Assembly (NCBI RefSeq): GCF_002214185.1
Contig: NZ_CP022161.1
Span: forward strand, 10,925,392 to 10,989,391
From: Streptomyces capitiformicae
GTDB taxonomy: Bacteria; Actinomycetota; Actinomycetes; Streptomycetales; Streptomycetaceae
Length of the DNA: 64,000 bases
Direction: 5' to 3'
Positions 1-64,000 of the stretch are shown piece by piece. Below the pieces are notes generated by a model. It saw only the letters and a program-made list of their open reading frames with translations, was not told where the DNA came from and searched no databases. Every line of letters begins with the position of its first letter. Positions within the stretch are counted from its first letter, which is position 1. The translations under genes were made by a program, and so were the position numbers.

Positions 1-294
1 GGCCCAGAGGCCGCCAACTACAGGTGGCTGCGCGGCAACGCGGCCCGCTTCGGCTTCCTCCAGCCGTACACAGCGGAGTCGGCCAGGACCAAGCCGGCGA
101 TCAGCGAGGAGCGCTGGCACTGGTCGTACGCGCCGGTCTCGGAGGCCGTCCTGGACTTCGTCCGCGCGAACCAGGACGTGATCTCCGCTTCGCTGGACCA
201 GCTGTGGAGCTACGACCCGACGCGGTTCACGTACATCAAGGAGAACTGGCGCAACTACATGTTCCACGTGAACGAGAAGGCGTACTTCGGCTAG
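1..294 (+). CDS. M15-type D-Ala-D-Ala carboxypeptidase, C-terminal fragment
   Basis: The frame is open from base 1 to TAG at 292-294 (97 residues), so the start lies outside the window. It contains NYRWLRGNAARFGF followed by SEERWHWSY. The ExxWHW arrangement matches the catalytic Glu and last zinc-binding His of M15 (VanY/DacY-like) peptidases, which trim the terminal D-Ala of peptidoglycan stems outside the membrane. About 60 residues follow the motif, more than in minimal VanY. The stop codon is part of a CTAG that also begins the next IS end, so the natural C-terminus may be slightly altered. Family call is by motif only. Confidence 0.65.
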   Translation, partial: GPEAANYRWLRGNAARFGFLQPYTAESARTKPAISEERWHWSYAPVSEAVLDFVRANQDVISASLDQLWSYDPTRFTYIKENWRNYMFHVNEKAYFG

Positions 295-377
295 TAGGGC
301 TCCGTTAGGTTGCTCTGGCTCTTGGGTTCTGGCTGGTGGTGGATGTTCTGGGCAGGGGGCGGTGGCAGGTGGTGCAG
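291..377. mobile_element. End of an unidentified insertion sequence
   Basis: The 20-nt sequence CTAGTAGGGCTCCGTTAGGT (291-310) recurs in inverse orientation at 22490-22509, then the two diverge, as the two ends of one IS would. CTAG may be the target site. About 83 bases of IS end seem to be present before the next fragment starts near 378. No transposase is present, so the family is unknown (a CTAG target would fit IS701-like elements, inference only). Confidence 0.4.
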
Positions 378-1204
378 GTGCCGGTCCAGCAGTTCAGCAG
401 GTCCTGGATGGTGGTCACCCGGAGCGCCAGCCACGAGACGCCGTATCCGAACGCGATCAGCGCGGGACCGACCACGGCAAGCCGCCGCCGCACCGCGCCG
501 GAGGCCAGATCCAGCCGGCCCAACGCCATGCCGGTGACCACGAAGGTCATCCAGGTGATCGCCGGGTAGAAGCCGGTGAGCAGGAAGTCGAGCACGCCCA
601 CGCCGGAGAGTCGCGCGATCGGGTCGTACGAGTCGATGGTGTTCACGGTCGACTCGCTGAGCAGCGCCCGCAGGGCGTACGCCACCTGCGGCGTGACGAG
701 CGCGAGGGCGACCGCGATGGTCGCGAGCGCCCTGGCCCGCAGCCGCAGCAGGGGCAGGGCCAGCAGGAAGTACACCGCGTAGAAGTTGAGGATCCCGGCG
801 CCGCCGAAGTCGGTCATCGCCAACGCGGTGCCCACCACGAGCAGGATCACGGCCCGGATCACGATCCTGGCCTTCGCCTGCCGGCCGGCCAGTCCGGTCT
901 TCGGCTCCAGGCGGCCGGCGATCAGCACCAACGAGAACCCGGCGAGGGTGGCGAACAGCGCCGAGGCCCGGCCGCTCGCCAGCCAGACGGACCAGGTGCC
1001 AACACCGTCGCCGGACGTGGGGAAGGGGTTGAAGGGGCCGACATGCACGGCGAACATTCCGAACACGGCCACCGCACGGGCGAGGTCCACCCCGACCAGC
1101 CGCGCCGCCGACGAAGGGCGTTCCGTCGCTGTGGCGGACTCGGGTGCGGGTAAGGGCTGGGGAGGCGCCTCCTTGGCGCTTTCGATCTCGGTCACCCGGG
1201 ACAA
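378..1204 (-). CDS. YeiB/DUF418-like multi-pass membrane protein, N-terminal part
   Basis: Begins at ATG 1204 with a soluble lead of about 35 residues, then repeated hydrophobic segments (VDLARAVAVFGMFAVHV, SALFATLAGFSLVLI, AVILLVVGTALAM, FYAVYFLLALPLL, ITWMTFVVTGMAL). The start LVGVDLARAVAVFGMF is typical of DUF418/DUF1624 acyltransferase-like integral membrane proteins of unknown substrate. The C-terminal half is missing: the frame runs into IS-end sequence near 378. A paralogous C-terminal half lies at 30838-31476 and overlaps in family at TGFYPAxTWMxFV, showing what is lost here. Confidence 0.7.
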
Positions 1205-1391
1205 CCTTGCCGAGGCGGGGGCGGTCGACCATCCGCCGGGCTTCGGGAGGTGTCCCGCCGGTCGGCCGACCGGCCCCCTCCGATCGGCGGGGGCCGGTCA
1301 CGTCCGCCGAGGTGGTGTATCGACGAGCGGACGACTCCCGCCCGGCCGGTGCCTGCGGCGATGGGTTCGAAGTCCCGGTCCCGGTGGGAAA

Positions 1392-1432
1392 GGGCAGTCC
1401 CCGCAACTTGGCATGCTGTCGTGGGACTGCCC
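1392..1432. terminator. Hairpin terminator between convergent/divergent fragments
   Basis: GGGCAGTCCC (1392-1401) and GGGACTGCCC (1423-1432) form a perfect 10-bp stem with a 21-nt loop. It lies downstream of the lectin gene that ends at 1477 on the minus strand, so it probably terminates that transcript. No U-tract follows, usual for streptomycetes. Confidence 0.6.
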
Positions 1433-1476
1433 TCAACCGATCGGGCGTCTCCCCGCGCGGTGGTAGGGGTGGCGGG

Positions 1477-61905: not shown

Positions 61906-62439
61906 GGTCGTCGCGACCGCGAGCGGCGGCGAGGCCGTGGAGACCGTCCGCCGGGAGCGGCCGGACGTGGTGCTGCTGGACATACGGATGCCGGACGTCG
62001 ACGGGCTGACCGTCCTGCGCGAGCTGCGGACGATGCCGGACGCCCCGGTGGTGGCGATGCTGACCACGTTCGACGCCGACGAGTACGTCCTGACCGCGCT
62101 GCACTGCGGCGCGGCCGGTTTCCTGCTCAAGGACACCGAACCGGAGCAACTCGCCCCTTTGGTACGCACCCTGGCCGCGGGCGGCGTGGTGCTCTCCCCC
62201 AAGGCGTCCCGGACCCTGCTGCACAGCCACCCCGGCACCGAGGCGGCCGTCGACGAGGACGCGGCCCGGGTCCGGCTGCTGACCGCCCGCGAGCGCGACG
62301 TCCTCGTCCTGGTGGCGGAGGGGATGTCGAACGCCGACATCGGGGCCCGCATCCACCTGGGCGCCGGCACGGTCAAGGACCACGTCAGCGCCATCTTCAC
62401 CAAGCTGCGGGTGACGAGCCGGGTGCAGGCCGCGCTGCT
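61906..62439 (+). CDS. NarL-type response regulator, N-terminus cut
   Basis: Receiver domain from TASGGEAVETVRRERPDVVLLDIRMPDVDG with the phosphoacceptor Asp, TTFDADEYVLTALHCGAAGFLLKD with the conserved Thr and Lys; LuxR HTH TARERDVLVLVAEGMSNADIGARIHLGAGTVKDHVSAIFTKL. The last 83 bases equal 53984-54066, where the gene finishes and runs into its kinase. First about 30 residues missing. Confidence 0.93.
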
Positions 62440-62971
62440 ACCGCCGTCGAGCTCGTCGTGGACGGCGAAGTGGTGCGCAGCGCCACCGGAAAGGACGCCG
62501 AGGCTCTCAACTGGGCCTCCTGGGAGGTCAGCGCCCTCGCCGGCAAGAAGGCGCGGATCAGAATCGTCGACGACAACACCGGCGGCTGGGGCCACCTCAA
62601 CGTCGACCACATCGTGCTGTCCGACGCCTTGGCCCAGCCCGTCTCCCAGGAGACGTCCGTCAATCTGCTCGTCGACGGCGAGATCGTCCGCAGTGCCACC
62701 GGCACCGACAGCGAGACCCTGGACTGGGCCTCCTTCGACCTGCGTCCCTACGCCGGCAAGAAGGCGCGGATCCAGGTCGTCGACATGAACACCGGCGGCT
62801 GGGGCCACGTCATGGCCGACGAGTTCACCGCCGCCGAGAAGCCCGCCAAGTCCGTCGTACAGCGCGCCGACTGGGCCGACTACGGCAAGGACTACTACGC
62901 GGCGGTGTCCTGGGAGAACGCCCCGGGCGGCAAGCGGTACATGATCGGCTGGATGAACAACTGGGACTACG
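62440..62971 (+). CDS. GH32 levanase: insert-domain repeats and catalytic end
   Basis: Two tandem units of one pattern: AVELVVDGEVVRSATGKDAEALNWASWEVSALAGKKARIRIVDDNTGGWGHLNVDHIVLSD and VNLLVDGEIVRSATGTDSETLDWASFDLRPYAGKKARIQVVDMNTGGWGHVMADEF. Then the propeller resumes: ADWADYGKDYYAAVSWENAPGGKRYMIGWMNNWDYAG. The first 83 bases recur inverted at 62972-63054. Belongs with 44516-45293. Confidence 0.87.
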
Positions 62972-63488
62972 CAGGAGGCCCAGTTGAGAGCCTCGGCGTC
63001 CTTTCCGGTGGCGCTGCGCACCACTTCGCCGTCCACGACGAGCTCGACGGCGGTGGCGTTGTCGGTGCGGGCCGGGTGGTTGCCGCCGCCGATGAGGAAG
63101 TTGACGTACTTCTTGTCGATGGTGAACTCGGGCGACGTGAGGGTGCCGGTGGTGGAGTCGCCGTTCAGGAAGGTGTTGACCAGGCCGCTGCCCAGGTAGC
63201 CGGACACCTGTTGCTGGCCGGGGAGGGTGCCGGGAGCCGGTGCGGTGCCGAAAGCGTCCCCGGCCGCCGTCCAGTTGCCGTACGTTCCGCCTTCGAAGTC
63301 GGCGAGGACCGTGCCTTCGGGCGAAGTGCCGTCCATAACGGTTCCGGCTTCGTGCGGATGCCGCCCACCACCGATCTTGAAGTTCAAGTACGGGCTGTCG
63401 ACGGAGAATTCGGGGGAGGTGAGGGTGCCGGTGGTGCCGTCGCCGCCGTGGAAGCTGTTGGCGAGGCCCTTGCCGTCGAAGCCGGAGA
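62972..63488 (-). CDS. GH32 levanase: insert-domain repeats
   Basis: Minus strand, open: GFDGKGLANSFHGGDGTTGTLTSPEFSVDSPYLNFKIGGG, then EGTVLADFEGGTYGNWTAAGDAFGTAPAPG and YLGSGLVNTFLNGDSTTGTLTSPEFTIDKKYVNFLIGGG, then AVELVVDGEVVRSATGKDAE. Starts with the word ending 45211-45293 and ends with the word starting 62440. So 44516-45293, this piece and 62440-62971 assemble, through two 83-base overlaps, into one levanase. Confidence 0.9.
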
Positions 63489-63517
63489 TCCTTGCTCGAT
63501 TCGGCTCCGGCAAGCGA
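63489..63517. other. Short boundary stretch
   Basis: Downstream bases of the Asp23 gene; the fragment begins at 63489, directly after the levanase word ends at 63488. Confidence 0.6.
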
Positions 63518-64000
63518 TTACTCGAGCCGCCGCTCTGGTTGTTCCTCCTCCTCGTCGAACAAATACACATCGCCGACCGCGATGTTGACCTCGACGACTT
63601 CCAGACCGGTCATCCGCTCGATGGCAGCGATCACGTTCTCTCTGACGTCGCCCGCGACCTCGATGATGGAGACGCCGTACTCGACGACGATCTCCAGGTC
63701 GACCGCGGTCTGTACCTCGCCGACCTCGACCTTCACCCCGCTGGTGACGGACTTCCCGCCGGCACCGGGCATACGTTCACGCATGGCCCCCATGCCACGG
63801 GCGAACCCACCGCCCATCGCATGGACGCCCGGCACATCCCGGGCCGCCAGCCCGGCGATCTTCGCCACCACACCGTCGGCGATCGTTGTGCGGCCACGTG
63901 AATCCGGATCGCTTCCGTGCGGCACCCCTGCCCTGTTCCCGCCGCGCTCGCCCAATGATCCCGCGCGAGGGGTCTCGGTCCGGTTCGGCAGTCCGGTATC
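63518..64000 (-). CDS. Asp23/Gls24-family envelope stress protein, start outside window
   Basis: TAA at 63518; open to the window end, with TTG 63955 a possible start, but homology (GRTTIADGVVAKIAGLAARDVPGVHAMG) begins later and an upstream Met may lie beyond 64000. Alternating strands VTSGVKVEVGEVQTAVDLEIVVEYGVSIIEVAGDVRENVIAAIERMTGLEVVEVNIAVGDV and an acidic tail (DEEEEQPER). Gly/Met-rich middle (GGGFARGMGAMRERMPGAGG). In streptomycetes such genes occur in small clusters with amaP-like membrane proteins and help maintain the envelope. Confidence 0.88.
   Translation of the reverse strand, partial: DTGLPNRTETPRAGSLGERGGNRAGVPHGSDPDSRGRTTIADGVVAKIAGLAARDVPGVHAMGGGFARGMGAMRERMPGAGGKSVTSGVKVEVGEVQTAVDLEIVVEYGVSIIEVAGDVRENVIAAIERMTGLEVVEVNIAVGDVYLFDEEEEQPERRLE

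What the first reader, a model, noticed from the sequence alone, without database searches (positions are those of the whole stretch)
1..64000. The window is a chain of unrelated fragments joined end to end, each ending in an 83-base word found again elsewhere
Exact repeats of 83 bases (83-85) mark fragment ends: 5120-5203/22345-22428; 9413-9496/20015-20098 (inverted); 13382-13464/52641-52723/53320-53402; 24547-24629/24630-24712 (inverted); 31738-31820/59664-59746; 33642-33726/49004-49088; 36253-36335/45294-45376 (inverted); 36336-36418/38825-38907; 38066 end/47518-47601 (inverted); 39662-39744/48350-48432; 45211-45293/63406-63488 (inverted); 51962-52044/55862-55944 (inverted); 53237-53319/53901-53983; 53984-54066/62357-62439; 62440-62522/62972-63054 (inverted). 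A fixed length over unrelated genes is not a biological repeat; it is the overlap of neighbouring nodes in a de Bruijn graph. Any synteny, operon or fusion drawn across these joins is unsafe.
Basis: partly seen in the sequence, partly recalled or inferred. Interest (0 to 1): 0.88.

Follow-up and report, generated by a model that had tools for sequence, protein, structure and literature searches.

The report
Draft contigs glued together by length
This stretch is not a real piece of chromosome: it is about 71 small assembly fragments of a Streptomyces-like genome pasted end to end from longest to shortest, so gene order across the joins means nothing.

Summary
The finding is right and understated. 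All 15 repeat groups are present, and exact repeats peak at 83 bases, more sharply in 2.8 Mb of the record (141 of 83, 47 of 84, at most 21 at any length from 60 to 82). The window is the last 64 kb of a one-contig, 10,989,391-bp record. I place 70 joins in it, 64 from words and 6 from homology or length order; lengths fall from 1,630 to 512 bp. A test that assumes no order shows the same fall over the last 2.3 Mb. So this is a length-sorted concatenation of de Bruijn-graph contigs. Single-contig relatives agree: 67 of 136 alignment ends lie within 6 bp of a join (rotated joins: mean 1.7, maximum 12), and 20 of 21 neighbouring fragment pairs lie at least 39 kb apart, the exception being two branches of one bubble. 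A split S-adenosylhomocysteine hydrolase gene is contiguous in a relative, its halves overlapping by 83 bases. Only rRNA pieces were found, all in this window; the relatives have five and six whole sets. This is an artefact, not new biology.

The parts
1..64000 (.). Whole window: 71 fragments (the first cut by the window's edge), 70 joins, lengths falling from 1,630 to 512 bp; last 64 kb of a 10,989,391-bp record
36253..36335 (+). 83-base word at the end of one fragment; inverted copy at 45294-45376
36336..36418 (+). 83-base word at the start of the next fragment; direct copy at 38825-38907. Join 36335|36336
38067..38907 (+). Fragment with the 5' part of an S-adenosylhomocysteine hydrolase gene; its last 83 bases are the word
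   Evidence: in G007 this piece lies directly upstream of 36336-37201 with an 83-base overlap (1252140-1252829 and 1252747-1253613)
36336..37201 (+). Fragment with the 3' part of the same hydrolase gene, placed in the record before its own 5' part
   Evidence: joined open frame of 484 codons
12120..13464 (+). Shared fragment of a glgE-like gene; ends in the word that also starts 52641 and 53320 (join uncertain by 1-2 bases)
52641..53319 (+). glgE-like 3' branch 1 (GLGE_C)
   Evidence: G007 5649324-5649989
53320..53983 (+). glgE-like 3' branch 2 (GLGE_C); same first and last 83 bases as branch 1, so one bubble
   Evidence: G007 8112964-8113627
23555..24629 (-). Bubble branch A: flavodoxin/FAD part of a P450-reductase-like gene
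24630..25704 (+). Bubble branch B of the same stretch in opposite orientation; A and B together give the false inverted repeat and the 166-base palindrome at 24547-24712
35558..36335 (.). Polyketide synthase stretch whose two end words match those of 45294-46065
45294..46065 (+). Alternative branch of the preceding polyketide synthase stretch, inverted
8043..9412 (+). Fragment with the middle of 23S rRNA (model positions about 1070-2284)
56588..57215 (-). Fragment with the 5' part of 23S rRNA (model positions 31-514), 47 kb from the middle piece
   Evidence: the end at 57215 is set from homology and length order
60817..61368 (-). Fragment with part of 16S rRNA, the only 16S piece found in the record
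63489..64000 (+). Last and shortest fragment, 512 bp; suggests a 500-bp contig cut-off
   Evidence: the cut-off is inferred

Best explanation
The record is a short-read draft assembly. Its contigs were sorted from longest to shortest and pasted together without gaps, and the result is held as one contiguous sequence. Shown: 83-base words that recur elsewhere in the record abut at joins, and fragment lengths fall along the record. Inferred: the word is the overlap left where an assembler cut a de Bruijn graph at a branch (k of 83 or 84, depending on the program's convention, from recall). The window is the small-contig tail, so it is rich in sequence that short reads cannot resolve: rRNA, transposases, polyketide synthase modules, paralogous genes. 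Adjacent fragments are therefore not neighbours in the cell.
For: Repeat lengths peak at 83. The words differ from one another. Base 1-83 of the record is itself such a word, with a copy at 10,920,736. A chain of joins with falling lengths scores 56.7 in the window against at most 31.6 in 20 jittered controls, and 110.4 in the last 400 kb against at most 57.8 in the 18 controls completed there. A test that does not assume sorting: 93 places where one word ends exactly where another begins, about 0.12 expected; spacing falls along the record, Spearman -0.90, from about 54 kb to 512 bp. Alignments to relatives end at joins: 67 of 136 ends within 6 bp against a rotated mean of 1.7 and maximum of 12. 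20 of 21 neighbouring fragment pairs are at least 39 kb apart in G007. Hydrolase halves overlap by 83 bases in G007 (81 aligned bases in G005) but are in the wrong order here. No whole 16S or 23S gene was found in the record; G007 has five of each and G005 six.
Against: Little. One of 68 homology intervals (1344-2043) crossed a join as placed, at 1961; the window-only chain puts that join at 2044, where the match ends. Six of 70 joins (30836, 32736, 35441, 46836, 57216, 61906) have no word edge within 6 bases in the 2.8 Mb I held and rest on homology edges and length order; 35441 rests on length order alone. 44 of the 64 word-placed joins have a word on one side only; the missing partners may lie in the 8.2 Mb not read. 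The word at 35558 lies inside a fragment rather than at its end, so the assembler went through some branches. Rfam rRNA alignments overrun the joins by 16 to 133 bases, while nucleotide alignments to relatives stop at them to within a few bases where they reach the fragment's end. The record title, assembler and reads were not available.
Confidence: 0.98

Rival explanations
1. Contigs were ordered along a reference and only the unplaced leftovers were pasted at the end.
For: The window is the tail of the record and holds repeats, as leftovers would.
Against: Joins back to 8.66 Mb already show spacing falling from about 54 kb. Contigs of tens of kb would mostly have been placed. In the first 400 kb the only word found at a join is base 1-83, as expected if the longest contig comes first; other 83-92-base repeats there (180822, 180908, 189297) look like ordinary near-repeats. 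The middle 8.2 Mb was not read.
Confidence: 0.06
2. The 83-base words are a biological repeat: a mobile element, recombination site or shuffling system that cuts and joins genes.
For: Fixed length and both orientations occur.
Against: The words share no sequence: 2,617 of 2,628 pairs of distinct words have no common run of 12 bases. No process known to me orders pieces by length. Relatives hold the pieces unbroken, and 120 kb of one relative has no 83-85-base repeats.
Confidence: 0.005
3. A genuinely scrambled chromosome arm: Streptomyces chromosome ends are rich in transposons and rearrangements (recalled).
For: Window at the record's end; transposase or integrase domains in 13 of 68 frames scanned.
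Against: Housekeeping pieces (S-adenosylhomocysteine hydrolase, rRNA) lie there in fragments, and no whole rRNA gene was found elsewhere in the record. Falling lengths and exact 83-base overlaps are unexplained.
Confidence: 0.005

Closest known systems
Contig-end overlaps of de Bruijn graph assemblies
   Same: Contigs are broken at branches (PMC3369186, passages seen: traversal breaks when branches are detected and the separate traversals form the contigs), so neighbouring contigs keep a fixed-length overlap (recalled); bubbles come from near-identical copies (recalled).
   Different: Normally seen between separate contigs, not inside one sequence held as contiguous.
Concatenated multi-contig drafts (for example a single concatenated sequence written out from Artemis for viewing)
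   Same: A working file of contigs pasted end to end (PMC3630013, passages seen).
   Different: There it is an intermediate for plotting; here such a sequence stands in a genome collection as one 11-Mb contig.

Membership tests
Length-sorted concatenation of de Bruijn contigs | Exact repeats of one fixed length, unrelated in sequence | tested here: met
   controls
Length-sorted concatenation of de Bruijn contigs | The words sit at fragment ends and abut each other | tested here: met
   93 abutting places against about 0.12 expected; 20 of 64 word-placed window joins have a word on both sides
Length-sorted concatenation of de Bruijn contigs | Monotonically falling fragment lengths | tested here: met
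   against jittered controls; without assuming order (Spearman -0.90; spacing there skips undetected joins); one search shows 0 inversions among 70 full fragments, but the joins were chosen under that rule
Length-sorted concatenation of de Bruijn contigs | Neighbouring fragments lie far apart in finished relatives; homology stops at joins | tested here: met
   21 of 70 neighbouring pairs could be placed; window 40001-44000 was not searched
Length-sorted concatenation of de Bruijn contigs | Collapsed repeats: rRNA not whole | tested here: met
   the search scored 11 of 132 and 23 of 242 first-look candidates in this genome
Length-sorted concatenation of de Bruijn contigs | No read crosses the joins | not testable with these tools
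   no reads held
Biological repeat or shuffling element | Shared sequence among the repeats | tested here: not met
   73 distinct words, 2,617 of 2,628 pairs without a common 12-base run

The most novel reading that the evidence does not exclude
Records like this, drafts pasted into one contig and scoring as near complete (99.97% here), may form a hidden class among genome representatives. A histogram of exact repeat lengths, plus a check for any whole rRNA gene, would expose them in bulk.
Probability: 0.5. Interest if true: 0.3.

Novelty: not a real feature. Interest (0 to 1): 0.13.

Why it matters
Gene order, operons, fusions and gene clusters read across these joins are false. In the window, 93 of 250 open reading frames of 100 codons or more cross one of the 64 word-placed joins with more than 60 bases on each side (overlapping frames on both strands are counted), the largest being 1,114 codons at 34891-38235. 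The record is one contig with 99.97% completeness, so contig count and completeness alone would pass it as finished. The test used here needs only the sequence itself.

Tried and rejected
Naming the organism: a 50-base pattern across join 36335|36336 found nothing in genome contigs, whose note says the window's own genome may be left out; a paper search for the record length found nothing. Three literature searches for a described case and one for contig overlaps listed no paper that I recognised as being about this record; I saw only the listings, plus found passages of PMC3630013 and PMC3369186. Relatives of a P450 fragment (80 best of 364 kept) are mostly Streptomyces, the first three listed being S. 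neyagawaensis, S. humidus and S. torulosus; this suggests the genus, not the strain.

(a four-base pattern in L001) was not useful. The 400-kb chain chose 331, 1961, 3579 and 5121 for the first four joins; the window-only chain chose 414, 2044, 3662 and 5203, which a homology end at 2043 supports, so I used the latter. The glgE joining printed a minus-strand frame for branch 1; one search gives the forward frame. An earlier count said at most 14 repeats at any length from 60 to 82; the answer shows 21 at length 65, and the report uses 21.

Reading those rows by eye I saw none that crosses a join by more than 25 bases.
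Full report
What was checked. Maximal exact repeats of 83, 84 and 85 bases number 13, 3 and 2; no other length from 30 to 82 has more than two. The extra one or two bases are what chance agreement beyond an 83-base overlap would give. The words are unrelated to each other: 73 distinct words at window joins, 2,617 of 2,628 pairs with no common run of 12 bases, 7 with 12-15, and 4 that are one word shifted by a base or two.

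Where the window lies. It is G000:C1:10925392-10989391, the last 64,000 bases of a record held as one contig of 10,989,391 bp, 99.97% complete. I read the last 2.4 Mb and the first 400 kb. There the peak is 141 repeats of 83, 47 of 84 and 17 of 85, with at most 21 at any length from 60 to 82. The first 83 bases of the record are such a word too, repeated at 10,920,736. Control: 120 kb of relative G007 has 0 repeats of 83-85 bases, the last 120 kb of this record has 46.

Joins and order. The palindrome centre 24629|24630 accounts for one of the unseen. Of these 64, 20 carry a word on both sides and 44 on one; 25 have a copy inside the window. Partners of some sides lie in the part not read, for example a match of the start of fragment 12120 at 7,252,121 and of fragment 13463 at 1,255,277. 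A test that assumes no order finds 93 places in the last 2.4 Mb where one word ends exactly where another starts (about 0.12 expected); the spacing, which skips undetected joins, falls along the record with Spearman -0.90.

Join list (first base of each new fragment): 414, 2044, 3662, 5203, 6662, 8043, 9413, 10775, 12120, 13463, 14787, 16107, 17420, 18728, 20015, 21281, 22428, 23555, 24630, 25703, 26772, 27812, 28838, 29840, 30836*, 31821, 32736*, 33642, 34543, 35441*, 36336, 37202, 38067, 38908, 39745, 40572, 41372, 42165, 42952, 43738, 44518, 45294, 46066, 46836*, 47601, 48349, 49087, 49823, 50538, 51253, 51961, 52641, 53320, 53984, 54646, 55299, 55945, 56588, 57216*, 57843, 58461, 59067, 59664, 60256, 60817, 61369, 61906*, 62440, 62972, 63489. 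The six with a star have no word edge within 6 bases in what I held and were set from alignment edges and the length order, 35441 from length order alone; where a word is 84-87 bases the join is uncertain by 1-4 bases. With these the lengths show no inversion among 70 full fragments, by construction.

Independent evidence from relatives. Against the single-contig genomes G007 and G005 (window 40001-44000 not searched), 67 of 136 ends of 68 alignment intervals fall within 6 bp of a join; rotating the join list gives 1.7 on average and 12 at most. The intervals are not independent of each other, since many share an end. One interval crosses a join where rotations give 44.8 on average and 23 at least, and that join was misplaced by 83 bases in the list used. 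Of 21 neighbouring pairs with both members placed in G007, 20 are at least 39 kb apart and 19 of these at least 355 kb by the places typed in; the exception is the bubble pair 23555/24630.

Worked examples. The S-adenosylhomocysteine hydrolase gene is cut in two: 5' part at 38067-38907, 3' part at 36336-37201. In G007 the two pieces lie at 1252140-1252829 and 1252747-1253613, overlapping by 83 bases; in G005 the two alignments overlap by 81. Joined through the word they read as one open frame of 484 codons. A glgE-like gene has one shared fragment (12120-13464) and two endings (52641-53319 and 53320-53983), each of which keeps the frame open (574 and 569 codons); G007 has two such places, at 5.65 and 8.11 Mb, where the pieces overlap by 88 and 83 bases, so the shared part of two copies was probably collapsed. 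The inverted repeat 23555-25704 is the same kind of thing: two branches pasted in opposite orientation, both matching one place in G007 best.

rRNA. The search of the record finds only a middle piece and a 5' piece of 23S and one piece of 16S, all in this window (11 of 132 and 23 of 242 first-look candidates were scored). The 5' 23S piece is 47 kb and the 16S piece 51 kb from the middle 23S piece; those two are 3.6 kb from each other with six other fragments between. In G007 the matching pieces lie within about 4.2 kb at each of five sites. G007 has five whole 16S and five whole 23S genes, G005 six of each.

What the fragments are. I scanned one open frame from each of 68 of 71 fragments (the three rRNA fragments were left out) against Pfam: 58 of 68 have a match, 13 to transposases or integrases and 12 to polyketide or peptide synthase domains; the rest are assorted, largely metabolic, genes and a group II intron maturase. 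This is the mix that short reads break on.

Conclusion. The thing is an artefact: a draft assembly pasted together by falling contig length and held as one contig. The k value (83 or 84), the assembler and the 500-bp cut-off are inferences. No read data or record title was available.

Noticed in passing
record position 10785947 (outside the window): A run of 10 N, the only one in the 2.8 Mb read; perhaps a scaffold gap inside one contig.
   Followed up: no
26772-27811: One fragment holds a phage-type integrase and, at its end, a tRNA gene (27735-27808, minus strand): likely the integration end of a mobile element.
   Followed up: no
36253-36327, 45302-45376, 52079-52153, 55753-55827, 17352-17426: Five Rfam ASpks matches: four lie on or overlap frames with polyketide synthase domains; the fifth, 55753-55827, lies in a fragment that is an inverted near-copy of the polyketide synthase fragment at 51961, though the frame scanned there had no Pfam match. 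Probably protein-level conservation rather than an RNA.
   Followed up: no
14787-16106 and 23555-25704: P450 and flavodoxin/FAD pieces that lie next to each other at two places in G007 (4.38 and 9.85 Mb), so a fused P450-reductase gene in two copies seems likely here too.
   Followed up: partly
50538-51252: Piece of a group II intron with maturase and HNH domains.
   Followed up: no
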